From positions 1 through 48,324 of the forward strand of contig NZ_JACHGW010000012.1 of assembly GCF_014202505.1 (NCBI RefSeq): 48,324 nucleotides of DNA. Reading direction: 5' to 3'. The notes beneath the pieces were generated by a model that had not been told where the DNA came from, did not search any database, and saw nothing but the letters and a program-made list of their open reading frames with translations. The stretch is from Armatimonas rosea (GTDB lineage: Bacteria > Armatimonadota > Armatimonadia > Armatimonadales > Armatimonadaceae). Positions 33,851 through 43,801 of this stretch are shown here, piece after piece. Within the stretch, counting starts at the first letter, position 1. Each line of letters opens with the position of its first letter. The position numbers and the translations under genes were made by a program.

Positions 33851-36484
33851 GTGGATACTTGGCACTTCGAGCTACTTGGCGGCGTTCGCGCCTCCACTGC
33901 GTCGGTTCGAGTAGATGACCAGGTGGGCAAGAAACCTGGAGCTCTACTGGCCCTGCTCGCTCTCTCACCGGGACGCACCCGGTCCCGTGAGGAAGTCATT
34001 GATATCATCTGGCCCGAGGTGGACTTTGACGAGGCGCGCAACCGCTTTCGGCAGACCCTCTTTGTGCTCCGCAAGCAGCTGGAGCCTGCCGGGGTCGCGC
34101 CGGGAAGTGTGCTCTTTACAGACCGAACCCAAGTCGGAATTGCGGCGGGGCATACGAGCGATGTTGGGTTGTTCGAGCAAGCGTTGCGCAGTGCCGCTAT
34201 GACGACCGAGCCGGTTGTTCGTGCCCAGCACTTGCGCTCTGCCTTAGCGCTTTACAAAGGCGAGTTCGCGCCGGGTTTCTACTTGGACATACTGCTCACC
34301 GAGCGGGAGAGGCTCAATGCCCTAGCGCAGAGCGCACGAGAGCGCCTCGCCGAGCTGGAGGCCACGCAGAGTACGGAAGTGACGCTGCCCGCACCCGTTC
34401 TGCCTGTGCCGGTTCGGACGGAGAACCGCTTCTTTGGCCGTCAGTCCGAGCTTGAGCACCTGCAGCTCCTGCTTGAGGACTTCCGGCTCGTGACGCTTCT
34501 AGGGCCGGGGGGTACGGGAAAGACACGTCTCGCACAGGAGCTACAAGCTACCACGCCCAGCTCTCACTTTATCAGCCTGAGCTCACTACGAAACGGGACT
34601 AGTATTCCCGATGCCATTGTCAGTACCTTAGCTTTGCCCGACTCCACGGATACAGCGCTGGTGCGCCTGCGAGCTGCTTTTGCCGAAAAGTCGGCGCTGT
34701 TGATCTTAGACAACGTTGAGCAATTAGTTACCAGCGGCGGTGCGGAGGCAATCGCAAGTGTCTTAGAAGCTGTCCCCACGCTACGTCTGCTCGCGACATC
34801 ACGCATTCGCTTGGACTTGCCACAGGAGTCGGCTTGCCAGCTTTCACCGCTTCCTAAAGACGATGCTGTTGCGCTATTTGTGGACCGCGCCCGCCTGGCT
34901 AAATCTAGCTTTGTGCTGACCGATGAAAATGAAGAAGCTATTGCCGAACTGTGCAGGCGTCTTGATGGGCTGCCACTCGCCATCGAGCTTGCCGCCGCCC
35001 GCGCTGCGATCCTGACACCACAACAGATACTGGAGCGCCTTGCTCGCCGCTTCGATCTGCTATCAGACAAGCGCCGTGACCGAGAAGAGCGGCACACGAG
35101 CTTGCGGGCCGCGCTCGACTGGGGCTGGAGCCTGCTTGCCCCCGATGTCCAGCGCTTCTTCACCCAGCTCTGCATCTTTCGAGGGAGCTTCTCGCTCGAA
35201 GCCGCCGAAGCCATAACGGGAGAGTTTCTCGCCATTGACTACCTCCAGAGCCTCGCCGATGGCTCGTTTCTTGTGGCGGAGGGAGAGCGCTTTCGCCTGC
35301 TAGAAACCCTCAGAGAATATGGCCTGGAAAAACTCAGCAAAGACGATAGCGACACGCTCACCCAAAAACACGCCGATTACTTTATAGACTGGACGGCAGA
35401 AAGGAAGCTCCTGCTCAATGGGGCGCAGTTTGCCGAGATACTAGCGCTCTTTAAGCAGGAGCAAGATAACTTTATCGCGGCACTAGACCGAACCCTGATC
35501 TCTGATGCCAAGCGGGCGGTGGTTCTGTGCCTGAACGTGGCGCGTTTCTGGAACTTCTCCTACTGGCTTCACCCGGCCCTGAGCTACCTGCAGCAAGCAC
35601 TCGCCGCGACGGAGCGTGCGGAAATTCCAGCGGAGCAAGTGGCTCTGCTCCACTCTAACTTGGGGCTGGCCTATGAGTCACTTCAAATGGACTATCTTAG
35701 CGCACGAACCCATTACCAGAAGTACTACGACTTTAAACAAGGGCAGCTTAAAGAGCGGGAGGCCGCAGGCGACGATGACGCGACACTCTTCCCGATTCGG
35801 CGTGCCCTTGCGGGAACGGTACATAATCTGGGAACGAGCTACTGGTTTGCCAAAGACCTGGACGCCGCTCAGCGCCACTACAACGAGGCCCGTATTCTCA
35901 ATACGGCTATCGGCAACGATGCCTGGCGTGCATTCAATCTCTGTGGATTGTACCTGGTCGCTTGGACACGTGGCTACTCCGCAGAAGACCCGGAGGAGCA
36001 GGCGATCTACTTTGAGCAGGCACTGAGGTATGTTCAGGAGGGGGAGGCGATCTGCCGCGAGGTTCAGCAGGATTTCTATCTGTGTTACATGCTCTGTGGG
36101 CTTGCCCGTCTCTATCCGCTCTTGAATCAGCAGGAGCGTGGCCTGCCTGCTTTAAAAGAGGGCTTTGAGATCGCCTGCGCTCTGGAGCACCGGGTTTATG
36201 TTGTGGATTTTCTCTACTTCTACTACTGTCAGGCACTCCACGACAAGCGCTTCGAGGAAGCCACGCAGTTCTGGGGAGCTGCGGCAGGCTATGCAAAACA
36301 GTGGGATATTGTGGTTCCCCATGAAGATCGTCACCTGCGTCCCCAAGTCAATCTAACAGAGCTTCTGGGGCAGGAGCGCTACGACCTGCTCTATGAGGCG
36401 GGCTTCCACGCCTCTCTCGAATCCCTCCAGACCCTCGCCGCTCGGATTCACACGTCTCACGAGACGCAACGACTAGCCTACTGA
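33851..36484 (+). CDS. AfsR-like regulator: BTAD + NB-ARC ATPase + TPR (first)
   Basis: An 877-residue STAND-type regulator. The N-terminus (1-~165) has a winged-helix/OmpR-like part (FELLGGVRASTASVRVDD, SREEVIDIIWPEVDFDEARNRFRQTLFVLRKQL) and a BTAD bundle (LRSALALYKGEFAPGFYLD). The NB-ARC domain holds Walker A GPGGTGKT (218-225), Walker B LLILDNVEQLV, LLATSRIRL and GLPLAIELAAARA. The C-terminal ~400 residues are TPR-like helices (LHSNLGLAYESLQMDY, HNLGTSYWFAKDLDAAQRHYNEARIL). Such proteins activate specific promoters upon ATP and effector/phosphorylation input. GTG 33851 follows TAAAAT at leaderless distance. The next gene is a second member of the family, 23 bp downstream but with its own TATAAT. 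Confidence 0.9.
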   Translation: MDTWHFELLGGVRASTASVRVDDQVGKKPGALLALLALSPGRTRSREEVIDIIWPEVDFDEARNRFRQTLFVLRKQLEPAGVAPGSVLFTDRTQVGIAAGHTSDVGLFEQALRSAAMTTEPVVRAQHLRSALALYKGEFAPGFYLDILLTERERLNALAQSARERLAELEATQSTEVTLPAPVLPVPVRTENRFFGRQSELEHLQLLLEDFRLVTLLGPGGTGKTRLAQELQATTPSSHFISLSSLRNGTSIPDAIVSTLALPDSTDTALVRLRAAFAEKSALLILDNVEQLVTSGGAEAIASVLEAVPTLRLLATSRIRLDLPQESACQLSPLPKDDAVALFVDRARLAKSSFVLTDENEEAIAELCRRLDGLPLAIELAAARAAILTPQQILERLARRFDLLSDKRRDREERHTSLRAALDWGWSLLAPDVQRFFTQLCIFRGSFSLEAAEAITGEFLAIDYLQSLADGSFLVAEGERFRLLETLREYGLEKLSKDDSDTLTQKHADYFIDWTAERKLLLNGAQFAEILALFKQEQDNFIAALDRTLISDAKRAVVLCLNVARFWNFSYWLHPALSYLQQALAATERAEIPAEQVALLHSNLGLAYESLQMDYLSARTHYQKYYDFKQGQLKEREAAGDDDATLFPIRRALAGTVHNLGTSYWFAKDLDAAQRHYNEARILNTAIGNDAWRAFNLCGLYLVAWTRGYSAEDPEEQAIYFEQALRYVQEGEAICREVQQDFYLCYMLCGLARLYPLLNQQERGLPALKEGFEIACALEHRVYVVDFLYFYYCQALHDKRFEEATQFWGAAAGYAKQWDIVVPHEDRHLRPQVNLTELLGQERYDLLYEAGFHASLESLQTLAARIHTSHETQRLAY

Positions 36485-36492
36485 AGAATCGG

Positions 36493-36498
36493 TATAAT
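36493..36498 (+). promoter_or_regulatory. -10 element for a leaderless transcript (second regulator)
   Basis: A consensus TATAAT 9 bases before ATG 36508, no ribosome binding site between. It lies in the 23-bp gap after the first regulator gene, so the second regulator can be transcribed on its own. Confidence 0.6.
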
Positions 36499-36507
36499 CG
36501 AGCCTGT

Positions 36508-39342
36508 ATGGTACACCTGAGGCTCCTAGGGACCTTCCGTGCTCAGACCCAGGAGGGGCTCCCACTACGCTTCAGCCGCCGGAAATCAGAGGCACTCGTG
36601 GCCTTCCTCGCGCTCCATCCTGGCCCGCACTCCCGGGAGAAACTCGCCGGGCTCTTTGGGGGTGAAGGCACCGACGACGACACACGAAGGGCATTGCGTG
36701 TCGTTCTCACCGATGTGCGCAAAGCGCTGGGCGAGACGAGTCTCCAGGGCGACCGGGATACGCTGGAGCTATCCCCCGAGCTACGGGTACAGCTCGATAC
36801 GACGGCACTGGAGCGGCATCTGCGCCTAGGGGAGCTAGAGGCGGCGCTGGCCCTCTGCCAAGGCGAGCTTTTGGAGGGGATCTACGACGACTGGGTGCTG
36901 CCACTGCGCGAGCACTACCGGCGGCAGGTATGTGAGGCTCTAGAGAGCCATGTCGGGCGGCGACGAAGCGCGGGGGACTATGCCGGTGCGATTACCTCGG
37001 CCCAGCGGCTTCTCGCTCTGGACCCCGCCCATGAGCCTGCCCACCAGCATCTGATGGTTTGCTACGCCGCCTCGGGGGATCGACAGAGCGCTCTCGCCCA
37101 GTACGAGGCCTGCCGTGCGGCTCTGGAAAAGCGGCTCGGGACAGCTCCCTCGAAGGAGACTCAGGCACTCTGGCAGGAAGTTCAGAGACACGCTGAGGGC
37201 ACCACGGCGGCGGCACTGACCAACCTGCCCCGCCCCCTGACCAGCTTTATAGGGCGCGAAGAGGCCCTAGAGGAGATCGAGACCCTTCTCACTCAGGCGC
37301 GGCTCGTGACCCTCACGGGAATGGGGGGGCATGGGAAAACACGCCTCGCGATCCAGGCGGCTGAGGAGGGTAGCCACGCCTTCCCCGATGGCGTCTGGTG
37401 GGTGGAGCTCGCTTCGTTAACCGAGGAAGGACAGCTAGAGCAGGCAATTGCTCATGTCCTAGGGGTGAAGGAGCGGGGTGGGAAGCCGCTGCGGCTGCAG
37501 GTGGCACAGGCACTTAGCGAGAAGCGGCTCTTGCTGTTGCTGGACAACGCGGAGCATCTGCTTGCCGCCTGCGCCGACACGGTCGAGTACTTGCTGGCGC
37601 ACTGCCAAGGACTCACCGTTCTTACTACCAGCCGTGTCCGCCTCGGGGTGCCCGGTGAGACTGCCTGGGCGGTCCCCCCCCTCACCGTGCCGATACGCAC
37701 TGAGCTCAAGTATCTCAAGAAGAACGAATCTGTTCAGTTTTTTATCGAGCGAGGGCGCATAGGGGGGCTACAGCTGAGCGACGAGAACGCGGCGACCATC
37801 GCCACGCTCTGCCAGCGACTGGAGGGAATCCCTCTGGCATTGGAGCTAGCGGCGGCGCAACTACGTACCCAGAGCCTAGAGCAGCTCGCGAGCCGTATCC
37901 AGACCACCTTAGAGGCGCTGGTCTCCGACGATCCCACCCAAACGCCACGTCAGCGAACCCTCCATGCTCTGGTCGCGTGGAGCTATGCGCTCCTGAACCC
38001 GGTAGAGCAGGCGCTCTTCCGACGGCTTGCGGTCTTTGCGGGAAGTGGAGGGTTGGAGGCGGTGGCAGTGATCGCAAGCGGCTACGATACGCCTCACGAG
38101 ACACTCCTTCCCCAAACGACGGCCTCGGTGTGGGCGCTTCCCGTCACGGGTCTCCTCGTGACCCAACAGCTACTGGAGAGCCTCTCGGAGAAATCTCTCC
38201 TGCGACGTTTTCGGAGCGAGCAGGGAGTGCGCTATGGCATGCTGGAGACCCTGCGTGAGTTCGCCTTGGGAGTGCTACAAGACGAAAACGAGTGCGTGCC
38301 TCTACGAAAGCGCCATGCACAGTATTTCTCCGAGCAGCTTGCCCACGCGAGTGTGGATCTCTACACCGCACAAGAATCTGGGCTCTTTGCCCTGCTGGAG
38401 CAGGAGCTTCCCAATGTGCGCGAAGCACTGGCACACCAGCTGGAGACACCAGACTGGCTTTGCTCTGCCCCAATGCTCTCCACCCTACGGCGCTTCTGGC
38501 AGGTGCGAGGGTACTTCACCGAGGCGCGTTCGTGGCTAACCCGGCTCCTTGAGCACCCTGCTGCCCTGTCTCTCTCCGAGGAGCGGGGGGAGCTCTTACA
38601 CGGGCTGGGTGTACTACTGGCCCTGAGCGGTGAGCTCGAAACGGCACGGGAGTGGCTTGAGCAAGCCCAAGCGGTCTATGAGGCCTGCTCCGTTCCAGAG
38701 AAGCGGGCCATTGTCCTCAATAACCTTGGCAATATCGCCATGGACCAGCACGACCTAGCGACCGCACGTCCCCTCTTCGAGCAGGCACGGCTCTTGGCGG
38801 AGGAATCAGGGAGTGTGCGTGTCCAGAGCATGACCCTCAACAACCTCGGCACCTTCTTGAAGAGCTCTGGGAACTGGGCAGAGGCGCGGGTGGTTCTGGG
38901 CGAGAGCCTTCGGTTGTACGAGAGCCAGGGGAACCGACGCGGGATGGGAATCGTGCTCAGTAACCTGGGAGCAATCGCCCTCGATTTGCAGGACAACGTC
39001 GAGGCGCAGCAAAACTTCACCAGCGCTTTATTGATTCACTGTGAGGTGCAGGACCGCCGGGGGGCAATGATCTCCGTCATCAATTTAGCGACCTTAACCC
39101 GCCGTCAGCAGGACTGGGAAGTCACCGCGCTCCTACTGGGAACCATACAAACCACACTAGAGCAGCTTGCCATTCAGCTTGGCCCAGAGGCGCAAGCCGC
39201 CTACCAAGGGCTCCTCAATGACACCCGTCAGGCCTTGGGCGAGTCGCGCCTTGATGTTATCCTGGCTCAGGGCAGAGCGCTCTCAATGGAAGCGGCCATG
39301 GAGCAGATTCCATCCGCGCTACAGAGCCAAACGGCTTTGTAG
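36508..39342 (+). CDS. AfsR-like regulator: BTAD + NB-ARC ATPase + TPR (second)
   Basis: A 944-residue protein of the same architecture as its neighbour. The winged-helix part is VHLRLLGTFRAQTQEGLPLRFSRRKSEALVAFLAL, with TRRALRVVLTDVRKALG. The BTAD bundle (~90-240) contains YAGAITSAQRLLALDPAHEPAHQHLMVCYAASGDRQSAL. The NB-ARC domain has Walker A GMGGHGKT (271-278), RLLLLLDNAEHLL, LTTSRVRLGVP and IPLALELAAAQ. C-terminal TPRs are clear (IVLNNLGNIAMDQHDLATARPLFEQARLL, LNNLGTFLKSSGNWAEARVVLGESLRL). The two regulators are paralogous but clearly diverged. Its 3' end forms a terminator hairpin and overlaps the first SARP-type box for the repeat-protein gene. It is a prime candidate activator of the following genes. 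Confidence 0.92.
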   Translation: MVHLRLLGTFRAQTQEGLPLRFSRRKSEALVAFLALHPGPHSREKLAGLFGGEGTDDDTRRALRVVLTDVRKALGETSLQGDRDTLELSPELRVQLDTTALERHLRLGELEAALALCQGELLEGIYDDWVLPLREHYRRQVCEALESHVGRRRSAGDYAGAITSAQRLLALDPAHEPAHQHLMVCYAASGDRQSALAQYEACRAALEKRLGTAPSKETQALWQEVQRHAEGTTAAALTNLPRPLTSFIGREEALEEIETLLTQARLVTLTGMGGHGKTRLAIQAAEEGSHAFPDGVWWVELASLTEEGQLEQAIAHVLGVKERGGKPLRLQVAQALSEKRLLLLLDNAEHLLAACADTVEYLLAHCQGLTVLTTSRVRLGVPGETAWAVPPLTVPIRTELKYLKKNESVQFFIERGRIGGLQLSDENAATIATLCQRLEGIPLALELAAAQLRTQSLEQLASRIQTTLEALVSDDPTQTPRQRTLHALVAWSYALLNPVEQALFRRLAVFAGSGGLEAVAVIASGYDTPHETLLPQTTASVWALPVTGLLVTQQLLESLSEKSLLRRFRSEQGVRYGMLETLREFALGVLQDENECVPLRKRHAQYFSEQLAHASVDLYTAQESGLFALLEQELPNVREALAHQLETPDWLCSAPMLSTLRRFWQVRGYFTEARSWLTRLLEHPAALSLSEERGELLHGLGVLLALSGELETAREWLEQAQAVYEACSVPEKRAIVLNNLGNIAMDQHDLATARPLFEQARLLAEESGSVRVQSMTLNNLGTFLKSSGNWAEARVVLGESLRLYESQGNRRGMGIVLSNLGAIALDLQDNVEAQQNFTSALLIHCEVQDRRGAMISVINLATLTRRQQDWEVTALLLGTIQTTLEQLAIQLGPEAQAAYQGLLNDTRQALGESRLDVILAQGRALSMEAAMEQIPSALQSQTAL

Positions 39343-39349
39343 CGCTTTT
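39316..39349 (+). terminator. Terminator overlapping the end of the second regulator gene
   Basis: GCGCTACAGAGCC-AAAC-GGCTTTGTAGCGC forms a 13-bp stem (one G-U pair) with a 4-nt loop, followed by TTTT. It spans the stop codon at 39340-39342. The right arm is also the first half of the 11-bp direct repeat described next. Confidence 0.7.
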
Positions 39350-39370
39350 GTAGCGCTTGCTCCTTAGAAT
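39337..39370 (+). promoter_or_regulatory. SARP-type promoter box for repeat protein 1
   Basis: TTGTAGCGCTT occurs twice in direct succession (39338-39348 region and 39349-39358 region, period exactly 11 bp). The second TGTAGCGC ends 8 bp before TAGAAT (39365-39370). SARP activators bind direct repeats with an 11-bp period, the promoter-proximal one 8 bp from the -10. The regulator genes immediately upstream carry the matching DNA-binding domain. The overlap with the terminator is a caution. Confidence 0.6.
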
Positions 39371-39420
39371 GGTTTTCGTAAGCTAAATCAACTCCCTTAT
39401 CGGAAAGGAAAACGAAAACC

Positions 39421-39603
39421 ATGAACACCAACATCATCAAGACCAACGCAACCAAGGGCGCTGGCATCAACCACAACGAGTCCACGCTTCGCACTTCTGC
39501 TGGCAAGGGATCTGGCACGAATCATAACGAGAGTGGGCTCCGCACTTCTGCAACGAAGGGAACGGGCGGCAATCACAACGAGAGCGTGCTCAAGGTGAAG
39601 TAG
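39421..39603 (+). CDS. Small tandem-repeat protein 1 (3-4 NHNES repeats)
   Basis: A 60-residue protein of unknown family made almost wholly of a 17-residue repeat. The layout is MNTNIIKTNATKGAGI, then NHNESTLRTSAGKGSGT, NHNESGLRTSATKGTGG and NHNESVLKVK. The N-terminus is itself a degenerate unit (NTNIIKT aligns with HNESTLRT), so there is no separate leader or signal peptide. It is basic, hydrophilic, lacks Cys, Trp and Tyr, and is likely cytoplasmic or exported without a standard signal. GGAAAGGA precedes ATG by about 11 bases. Position and style recall AfsS of Streptomyces, a ~63-residue repeat protein made under AfsR control, but the repeat sequence is different. Confidence 0.8.
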   Translation: MNTNIIKTNATKGAGINHNESTLRTSAGKGSGTNHNESGLRTSATKGTGGNHNESVLKVK

Positions 39604-39623
39604 CCCCCATCGCCGAGACGGTG

Positions 39624-39667
39624 CCCCCCCAATCATAGGACTGAACTGCCCCCATGATTGAGGGGGG
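39624..39667 (+). terminator. Hairpin after repeat protein 1 gene
   Basis: CCCCCCAATCAT (from 39625) pairs with ATGATTGAGGGGGG (39654-39667) apart from one bulged A, around a 17-nt loop. It begins about 20 bp after the stop. No T-run follows, so it is a probable but non-canonical terminator that would separate the two repeat-protein genes. Confidence 0.55.
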
Positions 39668-39728
39668 TGAGGAACGAGGCAGGGGCGTGGGGCAAATATA
39701 ACACAACATTTTCCCGCGCCTCGCCAAA

Positions 39729-39761
39729 ACTAACGGTGGACTAACGGAGGCTTCGTAAGAT
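39729..39761 (+). promoter_or_regulatory. SARP-type promoter box for repeat protein 2
   Basis: ACTAACGGTGG (39729-39739) and ACTAACGGAGG (39740-39750) are direct repeats with an 11-bp period, differing at one base. ACTAACGG of the second copy ends 8 bp before TAAGAT (39756-39761). Geometry is the same as in the box for repeat protein 1, but the sequence differs, which suggests a different activator or different affinity. The start codon is 100 bp downstream. Confidence 0.65.
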
Positions 39762-39860
39762 GGTGTCATAGCAAGCAGCCAAGCACAAAACAAAAATAAT
39801 AAAGCAAGGCGCTTGAAAAAAGACCAGGCGGAGACGCCCGGAAACAAGGAAACCAAAACT

Positions 39861-40247
39861 ATGAACACCAACACCATCAAGACCAGTGCAACCAAGGCCT
39901 TCGCACGGAACCACAACGAGTCCACGCTACGCACCGCTGCTGCAAAAGCCTATGTTCGGAACCACAACGAGAGCGCACTCCGCACCGTTGCTGCAAAGGG
40001 CATCAGCATCAACCACAACGAGTCCACGCTACGCACCGCTGCTGGCAAGGGGCTAAGCCTCAATCATAACGAGAGCGCGATTAAGACCACGGCTGCCAAG
40101 GGTATCAGCCTCAATCACAACGAGTCTACGCTACGCACCGCTGCTGCAAAAGCCTATAATCGGAACCACAACGAGTCCACGCTACGCACCGTAGCTGCAA
40201 AGGGCGTGAGTCTCAACCACAACGAGAGCGCGATCAAGGCGAAGTAG
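39861..40247 (+). CDS. Small tandem-repeat protein 2 (8 NHNES-type repeats)
   Basis: A 128-residue paralogue of the 60-residue protein. After a degenerate first unit (MNTNTIKTSATKAFAR) come six full units and a final half, all beginning NHNES with an exact 17-residue (51-bp) period. The consensus is NHNES-[TA]-[LI]-[RK]-T-x-[AG]-[AG]-K-[AG]-x-x-x, and the end is NHNESAIKAK. Two unit types (with KAYxR and with KGxSL) partly alternate. I use ATG 39861, because MNTNTIKT matches the paralogue and AAGGAAA precedes it; an ATG at 39813 is less likely. There is no signal peptide and no Cys. Possible roles: AfsS-like regulator, repeat precursor peptide, or metal/nucleic acid binding. None is proven. 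Confidence 0.8.
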   Translation: MNTNTIKTSATKAFARNHNESTLRTAAAKAYVRNHNESALRTVAAKGISINHNESTLRTAAGKGLSLNHNESAIKTTAAKGISLNHNESTLRTAAAKAYNRNHNESTLRTVAAKGVSLNHNESAIKAK

Positions 40248-40267
40248 CCTCCCCTGCTCGTACCCTT

Positions 40268-40299
40268 GCCACTCCCTTCCCGGAGCCGGAAGGAGTGGC
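40268..40299 (+). terminator. Hairpin after repeat protein 2 gene
   Basis: GCCACTCCCTTCC (40268-40280) pairs with GGAAGGAGTGGC (40288-40299), allowing one bulged C, around a 7-nt loop. No T-run follows. It may protect the 3' end or attenuate transcription into the small secreted-protein gene 33 bp later. Confidence 0.5.
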
Positions 40300-40332
40300 G
40301 GGTCGAGGTGAAAACGGAAACGGACGAAACGG

Positions 40333-40530
40333 ATGAAAACTCTCTTACTGATTGCCCTACTTTTGATGACGACGACACCTAGCTTTGCCGACGACTCCAA
40401 CTCCGAGCGTCCCGGCTGGATGCGCGAGGGCAAGGTCGTTCAGGCCCGCGAGCTCTCTGTTGCCTTCCAGGGCTTTGTCTATCTCACCTGCTACGCCACC
40501 TCCCAGAGCGCCGTAAAGAAAAACGCATGA
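40333..40530 (+). CDS. Small secreted protein
   Basis: A 65-residue protein with a good signal peptide (MKTLLLIALLLMTTTPSFA, cleavage before DDSNSER). The mature ~46 residues read ERPGWMREGKVVQARELS and then GFVYLTCYATSQ, with a single Cys. I recognise no family. GGAAACGGA-type purine-rich sequence precedes the ATG. Its stop overlaps the TPR gene start (ATGA at 40527), so it belongs to the TPR-MFS operon. It could be an exported peptide, a partner of the exporter, or a small periplasmic factor. Confidence 0.65.
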   Translation: MKTLLLIALLLMTTTPSFADDSNSERPGWMREGKVVQARELSVAFQGFVYLTCYATSQSAVKKNA

Positions 40531-41606
40531 GCACAATAGAGAGCGCCATCGCACTTTTTGAAGATGCCAGTGCCGCCCGTGAGCAGGGCAGCATTGCCCA
40601 AGCCACGACACTCTGTGCGCAGAGCTTGGCGCTCTTTGAACAGCTTGAGGGCGACTCTCCCGACACCGCCAACGTTCTCCTCACCCTCGGCGAGCTTCAG
40701 CAGGCGCTTGGCGACTACGAAGAAGCAAAAGAGTCGGCGACACGGGCGGAGACGATTTTAGACACCCTGAAAGAGAGCTTTACAGGGCCTGTTGCCGTAG
40801 GGCTGCGCGTACAGGCACTGGGGCAAATCGGCAATGTGCTTCGCCACCAGGGGAGGTACAGCGAGGCCAAGTGCTTTCTCGGTAAGGCCCTTGAGCTGGC
40901 CCGCGATGGCTTGGGTGAGAGCGACGAGAACACGGCCTTTGCCCGCAACAATGTCGGGATGCTCTACAAGTACACTGCCCAGTTCGACGAGGCCGAGGAA
41001 CTCTACGGCACCGCACTCACCGCACTTGAGAAAGAGCTCGGGGAAGGGCACCCCAACACCGCCACGCTCTACCATAACCTTGGGGGACTAGAGCACGCCC
41101 GCGGAAATTACGAAAAAGGCGAGCCACTGGCAAGACGAGCCTGGGAGATTAACCGAGAGCACCTCGGCGAGAGCCATCCCACCACCCTCGCCGATGCCGC
41201 CGCTTGGGCAGGGCTCCTCGATGGATTGGAGCGCTACAACGAATCCGAGCCAATCTACCGGCGAGTCCTAGAGACCTTCGAAGCCCTCTACGGCCCCGAG
41301 CACTACGAGGTAGTCGTTGCACTCAACAACCTCGCCAATGTGCGTTATGCGTTGGGGGATGTGGCAGAAGCCGAGTCTCTCATGCGCCGTGCTCTGACCG
41401 CCAAGGAAAGCTCCCTCGGCCCCGAGCACCCCGACACGGCACTCACGGCAAGCAACCTGGGCGTCATCCTCCAGAGCAGGGGCCAGACCGACGAGGCACG
41501 CACCCTCTTTACCCGCGCCCTCAACACGTTCCAGAATACCGTCGGCAAAGACCACCCTAAGACTCAGATGGCACGCGAAAACCTTGCAAGTGTAGGACTT
41601 TCGTGA
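40527..41606 (+). CDS. Tetratricopeptide-repeat protein (kinesin-light-chain type)
   Basis: A 359-residue protein made of about eight 42-residue TPRs, with the kinesin-light-chain-like pattern: LGQIGNVLRHQGRYSEAKCFLGKALEL, ARNNVGMLYKYTAQFDEAEELYGTALTALEKELGEGHPNTATLYHNLGGLEHARGNYEKGEPLARRAWEI. No catalytic domain, signal peptide or membrane segment is visible. This repeat type often accompanies STAND regulators and may bind peptides or proteins. It overlaps the small secreted-protein gene by 4 bp and the MFS gene by 4 bp (GTGA), so the three are translated together. Confidence 0.9.
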   Translation: MSTIESAIALFEDASAAREQGSIAQATTLCAQSLALFEQLEGDSPDTANVLLTLGELQQALGDYEEAKESATRAETILDTLKESFTGPVAVGLRVQALGQIGNVLRHQGRYSEAKCFLGKALELARDGLGESDENTAFARNNVGMLYKYTAQFDEAEELYGTALTALEKELGEGHPNTATLYHNLGGLEHARGNYEKGEPLARRAWEINREHLGESHPTTLADAAAWAGLLDGLERYNESEPIYRRVLETFEALYGPEHYEVVVALNNLANVRYALGDVAEAESLMRRALTAKESSLGPEHPDTALTASNLGVILQSRGQTDEARTLFTRALNTFQNTVGKDHPKTQMARENLASVGLS

Positions 41607-42817
41607 CCGTCTTTCGAGCCCTGCGAAACCGAACCTTCGCCGCACTCTGGCTAGGGCAGACCCTCTCCCGTATCGGGGACTTCACCTATGAGCTCGCACT
41701 GGCATGGTGGGTCCTCAAGAAAACCGGCTCACCACAGGCAACCAGCCTCGTGCTGATCTTTGCCCTCACCCCCTCAGTTCTCTTTTCACTTCTCGGAGGA
41801 GTCGCCGCGGATAAGTTCGCGCGTGCCTGGCTGATGCTCGGTTCAGATATAGCCCGTGGAGTCGTCGCGCTGGCCGTGGCCCTGCTGAGCGCCTCGGGAA
41901 GGCTAGAGGTGTCGCATCTCTACGTGGCGAGCCTGCTCTTTGGGTTTCTGGATGCCTTCTTTCAGCCCGCCTACGCCGCCCTCGTTCCCCAGCTCATCTC
42001 CGAGGACGAGCGCCCTTCCGCCACAGCACTTACGGGCATCAGTATGAGCCTCGGACGAATCGCCGGGCCTGCTATCGGTGCTGGGCTGGTGGCAGCCCTA
42101 GGTCCAACGTTAGCATTCAGTATAAACGCCGTGACGTTCTTCGTCTCCAGTCTTCTCCTGCTTCCTGCCCTGGGAGTTCGCCTTCCCAAAGCCGCGATTC
42201 CCCATGAGGCTCCCCTCTGGCAGTCACTCGGAGAAGGCTTTCGCACGGTTCGTCGCCAGCGCTGGCTGTGGGTAAGCATCGTGCTCTTTGCCTTGACCAA
42301 TATCACCCTGGTCGCACCGTATTGTGTCTGTATGCCCTATCTGGTGACGCAAGTGCGCCACGCGGGAGTGGGCACTCTGGGAATACTCTACGCCGCATTT
42401 CCACTGGGTTACCTGCTCGGGGGTCTCTGGCTTGGGCGACTGCCGCGGCTACGGCGACGTGGTCTGGTGATGCATGGAGCGATGGCTCTAGCAGCGACCA
42501 TGCTTGCGCTCCTGGGAACACGTCTGCCACTCCCCGTTCTCCTCGTGGCAGCTCTGATAAACGGGGTGGCGCTGGAGGCCAATAACCTGGCCTGGATGGG
42601 ACTCCTCCAAGAGAAGATCCCTCCCGAGCAACAGGGGCGTGTCTTTAGTATCGATGCGATGGGGTCGCTCGCACTCCTGCCTCTTGGGCTCGCGCTGGTA
42701 GGCTGGGGGGCAGTGGTGCTTGGGCCAGATAAGATCTTTCTCCTTGGTGGCAGCGTGACCACCCTGCTCTCTCTGTTCGTACTAGTAAGCGTGCCCTCCC
42801 TACGTCAACTGGATTGA
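41603..42817 (+). CDS. MFS transporter (probable exporter)
   Basis: A 404-residue permease with 12 predicted TM helices. The N-terminal RNRTFAALWLGQTLSRIGDFTYELALAWWV is typical of the MFS_3/enterobactin-exporter-like and macrolide-exporter groups. GGVAADKFARAWLMLGSDIARG contains the loop 2-3 motif (G-x-x-A-D-x-x-x-R region). The second half starts about residue 215 with RQRWLWVSIVLFALTNI. GTG 41603 overlaps the TPR stop. Its partners suggest export of a small product of this locus, but no biosynthetic enzyme is present. Confidence 0.9.
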   Translation: MTVFRALRNRTFAALWLGQTLSRIGDFTYELALAWWVLKKTGSPQATSLVLIFALTPSVLFSLLGGVAADKFARAWLMLGSDIARGVVALAVALLSASGRLEVSHLYVASLLFGFLDAFFQPAYAALVPQLISEDERPSATALTGISMSLGRIAGPAIGAGLVAALGPTLAFSINAVTFFVSSLLLLPALGVRLPKAAIPHEAPLWQSLGEGFRTVRRQRWLWVSIVLFALTNITLVAPYCVCMPYLVTQVRHAGVGTLGILYAAFPLGYLLGGLWLGRLPRLRRRGLVMHGAMALAATMLALLGTRLPLPVLLVAALINGVALEANNLAWMGLLQEKIPPEQQGRVFSIDAMGSLALLPLGLALVGWGAVVLGPDKIFLLGGSVTTLLSLFVLVSVPSLRQLD

Positions 42818-42937
42818 GCCACCAGGAAATGGCTGTGAGCTAAGATACCAAAATATGGTTCCTTTAGGGAGACACTTAGGGCATGGAGCGACTGCTGACG
42901 CCCCTCGGGGTGAGAACTCCCCGGAGTGCTCTGGCGG

Positions 42938-42943
42938 GTACAA
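42938..42943 (+). promoter_or_regulatory. -10 element for a leaderless transcript (Rpn-like gene)
   Basis: TACAAT ends 6 bases before ATG 42950 and there is no ribosome binding site. Same arrangement as before 33851 and 36508. Confidence 0.55.
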
Positions 42944-42949
42944 TCAGAC

Positions 42950-43801
42950 ATGCCCACTCCCTTCGACGCGACCACCAAAGAGCTGGTACGATTCCAGCCC
43001 GAGGACTGGCTCGCGCTCCTCGGACTGCCACCTGAGCCCTGTGAGCTGGTGGATGCGGATCTGGCAACCGTCTCCACAGAAGCTGACCGACTCATTCGTG
43101 TCAACTCCGCCAAGCCCTACCTCGTCCACATAGAGTTTCAGGCAGGGCACGATGGGCATGCCGTTCCGGGCCGAATGTTGCGCTACAACGTCCTGGCGGG
43201 TGAGCAGACTGGCCTCGTCGTCCTGAGCTATGTGATCTTGCTCCGACCCGAGGCCGACAGCCCCGCGCTCACGGGCAACGTCGAGCGCCTCCGTCCCAAC
43301 GGAACCCGCTACCTCGCCTTCGAGTTTGGCGTGATACGGCTCTGGAAGCTACCAGTTGCTCAGGTACTCCGCGGCGGACTAGCGACACTTCCTTTGGCTC
43401 TACTCTGTGACCTTTCCGCCACAACACCCGAGAATGTAGTCACGAATCTAGAGACCAGGATCGAGGCGGAAGCAGAGCAGGAAGAGCGGCGCAAACTCTG
43501 GACTTCGACCTACTTGCTGGCTGGGGTGCGGTACGCACCGGAAATTGCCGGTAAACTATTGGAGAAAGCGGTGGCACAGATGAAAGAATCCATGACATAT
43601 CAGAAGATCCTCGCAGACGGACGCGAGGAAGGCAAGGTTGACGGGGAGCGCTTACTCTTCTTAAAAGTGTCTCGACCTCGTTTAGGCGAGCCCGACGCAA
43701 AGACGCTCGCTGTCATCAATGCTGCATCCTCGGAGACTATCGAGCTTTGGGCAGATAATTTGAACCGCGTCGAGAGCTGGAGCGAACTCGTCAAAGCCTG
43801 A
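42950..43801 (+). CDS. Rpn-like / DUF4351 PD-(D/E)XK nuclease family protein
   Basis: About 283 residues from ATG 42950; this start fits the leaderless -10, and an in-frame TTG at 42926 would not. The core has ADRLIRVNSAKPYLVHIEFQAGHDGHAVPGRMLRYN, where the Asp and the E-x-Q (HIEFQ) are the usual Rpn-type PD-(D/E)XK residues. The C-terminus (SRPRLGEPDAKTLAVINAASSETIELWADNLNRVESWSELV) is a DUF4351-type helical tail. Such proteins are common, multi-copy accessory nucleases in cyanobacteria and related genomes. Activity is not certain. A hairpin with a T-run follows ~90 bp later. Confidence 0.75.
   Translation: MPTPFDATTKELVRFQPEDWLALLGLPPEPCELVDADLATVSTEADRLIRVNSAKPYLVHIEFQAGHDGHAVPGRMLRYNVLAGEQTGLVVLSYVILLRPEADSPALTGNVERLRPNGTRYLAFEFGVIRLWKLPVAQVLRGGLATLPLALLCDLSATTPENVVTNLETRIEAEAEQEERRKLWTSTYLLAGVRYAPEIAGKLLEKAVAQMKESMTYQKILADGREEGKVDGERLLFLKVSRPRLGEPDAKTLAVINAASSETIELWADNLNRVESWSELVKA

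What the first reader, a model, noticed from the sequence alone, without database searches (positions are those of the whole stretch)
39421..40247. A new 17-residue NHNES tandem-repeat protein family, present as a 60-aa and a 128-aa paralogue
The repeat NHNES-[TA]-[LI]-[RK]-T-x-[AG]-[AG]-K-[AG]-x-x-x has an exact 51-bp period: 3 NHNES units in one protein, 7 in the other. Even the N-terminus is a degenerate unit, so no leader exists. Near-identical codons between units indicate recent expansion. The conserved His-Asn-Glu could bind metal; the fixed Arg/Lys sites could be processed to release 17-mers. None of these is shown.
Basis: seen in the sequence. Interest (0 to 1): 0.85.

Follow-up and report, generated by a model that had tools for sequence, protein, structure and literature searches.

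The report
NHN-motif repeat peptides paired with TPR
The two repeat proteins are real and belong to a widespread, apparently unnamed family of small bacterial peptides built around the motif Asn-His-Asn-Glu/Gln, found next to one particular kind of peptide-binding (TPR) protein and often next to an exporter, so they probably form a peptide-and-receptor (or peptide-and-carrier) pair shared by distantly related bacteria.

Summary
In detail: 60-aa and 128-aa ORFs with 3 and 7 NHNES units, exact 51-bp period, under purifying selection between units (dN/dS 0.27). The expansion is not recent: synonymous sites differ by about 50%. The finding is larger than reported. The arrays head a co-directional gene set with a kinesin-light-chain-like TPR protein and an MFS transporter. 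A Chloroflexota MAG has the set twice (TPR up to 52%, MFS 52%, upstream BTAD/NB-ARC/TPR regulator 43% identical). In Actinomycetota the same TPR follows other small ORFs sharing only NH[N/S][E/Q]-x-hydrophobic-hydrophobic, in 1-7 copies, down to 18 aa. All 13 loci whose TPR carries the signature HNx[GA]G[LI]xH[AS] have such an ORF upstream; none of 11 signature-less TPR loci do. Searches ran both ways (peptide first, TPR first). The 17-residue period and Arg/Lys sites are local; the NHN[E/Q] motif and TPR partner are the conserved core. Best explanation: a linear-motif peptide, often a multicopy precursor, recognised by the TPR groove and commonly exported, working like a peptide-TPR signalling pair but not a member of RRNPP or FxSxx-COOH. 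Binding, export and processing are inferred, not shown. Novelty: new variant of a known kind.

The parts
39421..39603 (+). NHN peptide gene 1: 60 aa, 3 NHNES units, 17-aa period
39861..40247 (+). NHN peptide gene 2: 128 aa, 7 NHNES units, 17-aa period with 102-bp higher-order repeat
   Evidence: AF2 single-sequence model has no confident fold
40527..41606 (+). KLC-like TPR protein, 359 aa, 8 TPRs; carries HNLGGLEHA signature; proposed partner of the NHN peptides
   Evidence: 52% identical to the TPR next to a Litorilinea NHN gene, 47% to another; AF2 pLDDT 96.4; Foldseek best hits are peptide-binding TPRs
41603..42817 (+). MFS transporter (MFS_3/MFS_1), start overlaps TPR stop by 4 bp; proposed exporter
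   Evidence: Pfam; 52% and 50% identical to MFS in the two Litorilinea NHN loci
36508..39342 (+). BTAD/NB-ARC/TPR regulator immediately upstream; same position in one Litorilinea locus
   Evidence: Pfam; 43% over 852 aa to L109 4201-7251
33851..36484 (+). second BTAD/STAND-type regulator; membership in the module uncertain
   Evidence: Pfam; only about 31% identical to the Litorilinea regulator over part of its length
40333..40530 (+). 65-aa ORF with signal-peptide-like N-terminus, overlapping the TPR start (ATGA); not found in related loci
39316..39345 (+). terminator-like hairpin plus T run at the end of the regulator gene, suggesting that NHN gene 1 may start a separate transcript
   Evidence: 6 such sites found in the region versus 4.5 expected, so weak

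Best explanation
The window holds one copy of a two-gene core, an NHN-motif peptide gene plus a dedicated KLC-like TPR protein, here joined by an MFS transporter and an upstream BTAD/NB-ARC/TPR regulator. The NH[N/S][E/Q]-x-Phi-Phi segment is proposed to be a short linear motif that lies in the concave groove of the TPR superhelix, next to the conserved HNx[GA]G[LI]xH helix. Tandem copies make the protein a multivalent ligand or a precursor holding several peptide copies. Where an MFS is present the peptide, or pieces of it, is proposed to be exported. The most likely role is cell-cell signalling or a secreted peptide product, with the TPR as cytoplasmic receptor or carrier. Shown here: the arrays, selection on the reading frame, and the gene pairing across phyla. 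Inferred: binding (about 0.65), export (about 0.5), signalling rather than a bacteriocin-like or modified-peptide product (about 0.4). The confidence given is for the binding-plus-export chain as a whole.
For: Peptide first: a blind DNA scan of 84,980 genomes for two NHN[EQ] at 17-aa spacing gave 23 stretches. A TPR homologous to the window's lies directly downstream, same strand, in 4 of them (Litorilinea, two Kutzneria, Patulibacter) and in none of the other 19. TPR first: searches with TPR proteins alone led to six further signature-bearing TPR loci, all with an upstream NHN/NHS array or mini-ORF. In total 13 of 13 signature TPR loci have one, against 0 of 11 signature-less TPR loci. Conserved gene set between distant phyla: TPR 52%, MFS 52%, regulator 43%. 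MFS in 7 of 13 loci, MFS and TPR genes overlapping by 4 bp in several. The TPR model is confident (pLDDT 96.4) and nearest in fold to KLC-cargo peptide, APPBP2-degron and LGN-NuMA/Inscuteable complexes, all of which bind extended peptides. Purifying selection on units. The last motif lies 4-7 residues from the C-terminus in 12 of 13 proteins compared.
Against: No binding, export or processing was tested. The TPR has no effector or DNA-binding domain, so how a signal would be read is unknown. Six of 13 loci lack an adjacent MFS. Only one peptide (Patulibacter L085) has a hydrophobic leader. One locus carries a SagB-type peptide dehydrogenase, which hints at peptide modification rather than plain signalling. 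AF2 could not be run on the complex.
Confidence: 0.5

Rival explanations
1. Modified secreted peptide (RiPP-like or bacteriocin-like): the NHN protein is a multi-core precursor, the TPR is a carrier or maturation scaffold, the MFS is exporter or self-immunity, and NHN[EQ] is the recognition element.
For: In G1047 a SagB-family peptide dehydrogenase (TIGR03605, 107 bits, cut-off 78.4) starts 11 bp after the TPR. Units vary strongly between species but little within a gene, as in multicore precursors. The TPR proteins are closest to the FxSxx-COOH system TPR model, though far below cut-off.
Against: No modifying enzyme recognised next to the window genes or at the other loci examined; hardly any Cys (1 in 13 proteins); NHN proteins match no RiPP precursor model above cut-off.
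Confidence: 0.25
2. Multivalent intracellular scaffold: the unstructured repeat protein stays in the cell and gathers several TPR molecules; copy number sets stoichiometry, and no peptide is released.
For: Evenly spaced repeated motif, low-confidence fold, core pair without adjacent exporter in 6 of 13 loci.
Against: Single-motif members (18 aa in G1144; 40 aa in Patulibacter) cannot crosslink; MFS in 7 of 13 loci; spacing 13-38 residues is not conserved.
Confidence: 0.15
3. Regulatory leader ORF: translation of the NHN mini-ORF controls the downstream TPR/MFS genes (attenuation or nascent-chain arrest), and the peptide itself has no further function.
For: Always upstream; can be only 18 aa.
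Against: Arrays of 7-12 units and duplicate genes are not expected of a leader; selection extends over whole units.
Confidence: 0.05

Closest known systems
RRNPP/RRNPPA peptide-TPR quorum-sensing pairs (Rap-Phr, NprR-NprX, PlcR-PapR, AimR-AimP), including tandem-pheromone propeptides of phage Rap systems (PMC11343458, PMC10075063)
   Same: Short peptide gene adjacent to a 250-500-aa TPR protein; propeptides may hold tandem copies; the TPR protein binds a short linear peptide.
   Different: Described in Bacillota and their mobile elements; most propeptides there are Sec-exported with a signal peptide, absent in 12 of 13 loci here; the TPR here is KLC-type with its own signature; a fixed NH[NS][EQ] motif is shared across phyla.
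FxSxx-COOH peptide systems with TPR/AP-ATPase partner (PMC7159879; NCBIfam NF040586)
   Same: Small fast-diverging protein with a conserved C-terminal motif next to a TPR protein related to FxsT (best NCBIfam hit of the NHN-associated TPRs examined, below cut-off).
   Different: No FxSxx motif, no radical-SAM/SPASM, no metallopeptidase, TPR not fused to an AP-ATPase.
Kinesin light chain-type TPR domains bound to cargo peptides (e.g. 6swu, 6fuz, 3zfw); APPBP2-degron; LGN-NuMA/Inscuteable
   Same: Same TPR architecture; extended linear peptides bind in the concave groove.
   Different: Eukaryotic trafficking, degradation or polarity proteins; no NHN motif; no operon partner.
SARP/AfsR-like BTAD-NB-ARC-TPR regulators
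   Same: Domain architecture of the upstream regulators.
   Different: Seen beside only 2 of 13 loci, so accessory, not core.

Membership tests
NHN-TPR module (defined here) | Small ORF with one or more NH[NS][EQ]-x-Phi-Phi motifs, the last 4-7 residues from the C-terminus | tested here: met
   Window ORFs: 3 and 7 copies, 6 residues after the last
NHN-TPR module (defined here) | Downstream co-directional TPR protein with signature HNx[GA]G[LI]xH[AS] | tested here: met
   HNLGGLEHA in 40527-41606; 13/13 loci vs 0/11 controls
RRNPP quorum-sensing systems | TPR receptor of 250-500 aa with adjacent propeptide gene | tested here: met
   359-aa TPR, NHN gene 2 ends 279 bp upstream; criteria from PMC10075063
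RRNPP quorum-sensing systems | Propeptide 10-100 aa with Sec signal peptide (or SHP type) | tested here: not met
   60 and 128 aa, no hydrophobic N-terminus by inspection (SignalP not available); only Patulibacter L085 has one
RRNPP quorum-sensing systems | Relation to Rap/NprR/PlcR/AimR receptors | tested here: not met
   None among the 60 best PDB sequence matches of the TPR profile or the 50 best Foldseek matches shown; KLC-type matches instead
RRNPP quorum-sensing systems | Mature peptide re-enters the cell and switches the receptor | not testable with these tools
   needs experiment
FxSxx-COOH system | C-terminal FxSxx motif in the peptide | tested here: not met
   Window proteins end NHNESVLKVK / NHNESAIKAK; no FxSxx model hit
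FxSxx-COOH system | FxsT TPR equivalog (NF040586 cut-off 300 bits) | tested here: not met
   172 bits
FxSxx-COOH system | Radical-SAM/SPASM or metallopeptidase gene nearby | tested here: not met
   No such Pfam/NCBIfam match among the flanking ORFs 33851-43801
RiPP cluster | Peptide-modifying enzyme in the cluster | tested here: not met
   None recognised at the window; SagB dehydrogenase only in G1047
KLC-type TPR protein | TPR_12/TPR_10 repeats and KLC-like superhelix | tested here: met

The most novel reading that the evidence does not exclude
A peptide-communication system outside Bacillota, previously undescribed, in which NHN[E/Q]-tagged peptides, often encoded as tandem multicopy precursors, are exported by MFS transporters and read by a dedicated KLC-like TPR receptor, spread by horizontal transfer between Actinomycetota, Chloroflexota and the window's phylum.
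Probability: 0.3. Interest if true: 0.88.

Novelty: new variant of a known kind. Interest (0 to 1): 0.7.

Why it matters
Small peptide genes are mostly missed by annotation: in the Streptomyces plasmids here two of the three peptide ORFs are unannotated and the third is called hypothetical. A conserved motif plus a TPR signature lets anyone find the pair by computer and gives a direct, cheap binding test. If the pair signals, it would extend intracellular TPR-peptide communication beyond Bacillota to several little-studied phyla; if it is a peptide-product system, it gives a new handle for finding such products.

Tried and rejected
(1) Structural solenoid or fibre: single-sequence AF2 gave pLDDT 47, and weak phmmer hits to designed proteins and tail fibres look compositional. 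(2) Known domain: Pfam/NCBIfam/PHROG/PADLOC hits to the NHNES proteins are absent or sub-threshold. (3) A remembered family of KAGGxxxNHNQT peptides: pattern and tblastn searches in Chloroflexota genomes, IMG/VR and plasmids gave nothing usable, so it is not used as evidence. (4) Own-phylum relatives: the weak protein hits inspected (best E 0.01) are composition matches without NHN. (5) Phage or viral origin: no NHN-TPR pair found in phage records or IMG/VR. (6) Structured-RNA explanation: no Rfam hit; the hairpin after gene 1 is modest (z -1.98). (7) Recent expansion: rejected by pS about 0.5. (8) No paper naming the motif or system was found; the library is partial, so this is weak evidence of novelty. 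(9) Cyanobacteria: no hit of the NHN profile in 292 genomes, but that profile misses short Actinomycetota members, so absence is not shown.

Full report
What is in the window. ORF 39421-39603 encodes 60 aa with three NHNES units and ORF 39861-40247 encodes 128 aa with seven; every spacing is 17 residues. TRF gives 51-bp arrays plus a 102-bp higher-order period in the second. Whole-genome searches find no further copy. Nei-Gojobori comparison of units gives dN/dS 0.27-0.29 with pS 0.50-0.58: the peptide sequence is kept while the DNA has drifted, including serine switching between TCN and AGY.

Neighbourhood. All on the + strand: two BTAD/STAND regulators (33851-36484, 36508-39342), the two NHN genes, a 65-aa signal-peptide-like ORF (40333-40530), a 359-aa TPR protein (40527-41606) and an MFS transporter (41603-42817), the last three overlapping by 4 bp each.

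Relatives, peptide first. A scan of genome contigs for two NHN[EQ] codon patterns at 51-bp spacing returned 23 stretches. Four contain small in-frame repeat ORFs with a homologous TPR gene directly downstream: Litorilinea aerophila MAG (12 units such as NHNQTLVAVQKPGRALTT), two Kutzneria species and Patulibacter. tblastn of the window TPR finds nothing in the other 19 stretches. The Litorilinea genome has a second locus with 9 units such as NHNETAVKLSIVRKGLKT. There the whole order regulator-NHN-TPR-MFS matches the window (regulator 43%, TPR 52%, MFS 50%); in the first locus TPR is 47% and MFS 52% identical.

Relatives, TPR first. tblastn of the window TPR against plasmids hit Streptomyces sp. 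NBC_01334. Upstream of its MFS-TPR pair lies an unannotated 37-aa ORF MTQNNQAVVRRAGSMNHNQAVVRRAGSMNHNQAVVAR. A search of 216 genomes of the class of Kutzneria with its TPR gave G1047, G1132 and G1144 besides Kutzneria and one STAND-TPR fusion. All three have upstream NHN ORFs: 82 aa, 92 aa and 18 aa (MFYLARIVSNHNQVLLQD). A later plasmid search with these TPRs gave two more loci, examined as a blind test: a second NBC_01334 locus with NHNE protein WP_121413644, and Streptomyces sp. 3211 with an unannotated array of NHSEVVVEEGVAPQRGL units. A second Patulibacter locus (L085, met through a sub-threshold profile hit) has a 40-aa peptide with hydrophobic leader ending LNHNETVVER, followed by the TPR.

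The rule. All 13 loci whose TPR has HNx[GA]G[LI]xH[AS] have an upstream NH[NS][EQ] ORF on the same strand. Eleven TPR loci without that signature, including FxsT-annotated ones, have no such array. The 13/13 versus 0/11 contrast is a description, not an unbiased test: the signature was derived from part of the set, and some loci were chosen by the peptide. For Streptomyces sp. 3211 the motif was widened from NHN to NHS after looking. The fairest subset is the six TPR-first loci, of which six of six carry the peptide ORF (five NHN, one NHS); background is 1 in 1,399 short ORFs with one NHN[EQ]. Consensus over the 13 proteins (Streptomyces 3211 not among them): N-H-N(S)-E/Q-[VTIS]-x-[VLI], with 4-7 residues to the C-terminus in 12 of 13; charge (pI 4.1-12.0), spacing (13-38) and the rest of the unit vary freely.

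Distribution. In the window's phylum (291 genomes; the phylum is not named by the tool, probably Armatimonadota by inference) only the window's genome has a clear match, and no other member has a close TPR. Among 400 sampled Chloroflexota only the Litorilinea MAG does. The NHN profile is insensitive to the short Actinomycetota members, so these negatives apply to window-like arrays. Sporadic presence with 43-52% identity across phyla suggests horizontal transfer, though the base composition of the module differs only slightly from its surroundings.

Mechanism. The TPR model is confident (pLDDT 96.4, eight TPRs). Its best PDB fold matches are KLC with cargo peptides, APPBP2 with a degron, and LGN with NuMA or Inscuteable: superhelices that hold extended linear peptides. 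The invariant His183, Asn184, Gly187 and His190 (alignment A2) lie in helix 176-192, by repeat position a groove-lining A helix (inference). The simplest reading is that NHN[E/Q]-x-Phi-Phi is the ligand motif. Multicopy units then give several peptides per precursor or several binding sites per chain. MFS genes in 7 of 13 loci suggest export. One locus has a SagB-family peptide dehydrogenase right after the TPR, so a modified-peptide product remains a live rival.

Known systems. RRNPP pairs and their tandem-pheromone propeptides (PMC10075063, PMC11343458) are the nearest functional analogue, but the Sec signal and receptor relationship are not met. FxSxx-COOH systems (PMC7159879) share the small-peptide-plus-TPR layout, but motif, radical-SAM gene and FxsT cut-off are not met. 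It works like these; it is not shown to be either. No curated family searched here covers the peptides.

Noticed in passing
window 40333-40530: 65-aa ORF with a signal-peptide-like start (MKTLLLIALLLMTTTPSFA) between NHN gene 2 and the TPR gene, overlapping the TPR start codon; no homologue in the related loci.
   Followed up: partly
window 39626-39668: Strong inverted repeat (CCCCCCAATCAT ... ATGATTGAGGGGGG) just after NHN gene 1, without a T run; could limit transcription between the two NHN genes (fold z -1.98).
   Followed up: partly
L122 9234-10352 (G1047): SagB-family peptide dehydrogenase directly after the NHN-TPR pair, hinting at peptide maturation in that branch.
   Followed up: partly
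L128 2535-3029 (Streptomyces sp. 3211 plasmid p3211-1): Unannotated array of NHSEVVVEEGVAPQRGL units; the deposited annotation calls a gene on the opposite strand there.
   Followed up: yes
L127 5810-6340 (Streptomyces sp. NBC_01334 plasmid): 176-aa hypothetical protein overlapping the TPR stop, possible extra member of the module; no NCBIfam match.
   Followed up: partly
window 42926-43801: 291-aa ORF with no Pfam or NCBIfam match just downstream of the MFS gene.
   Followed up: no
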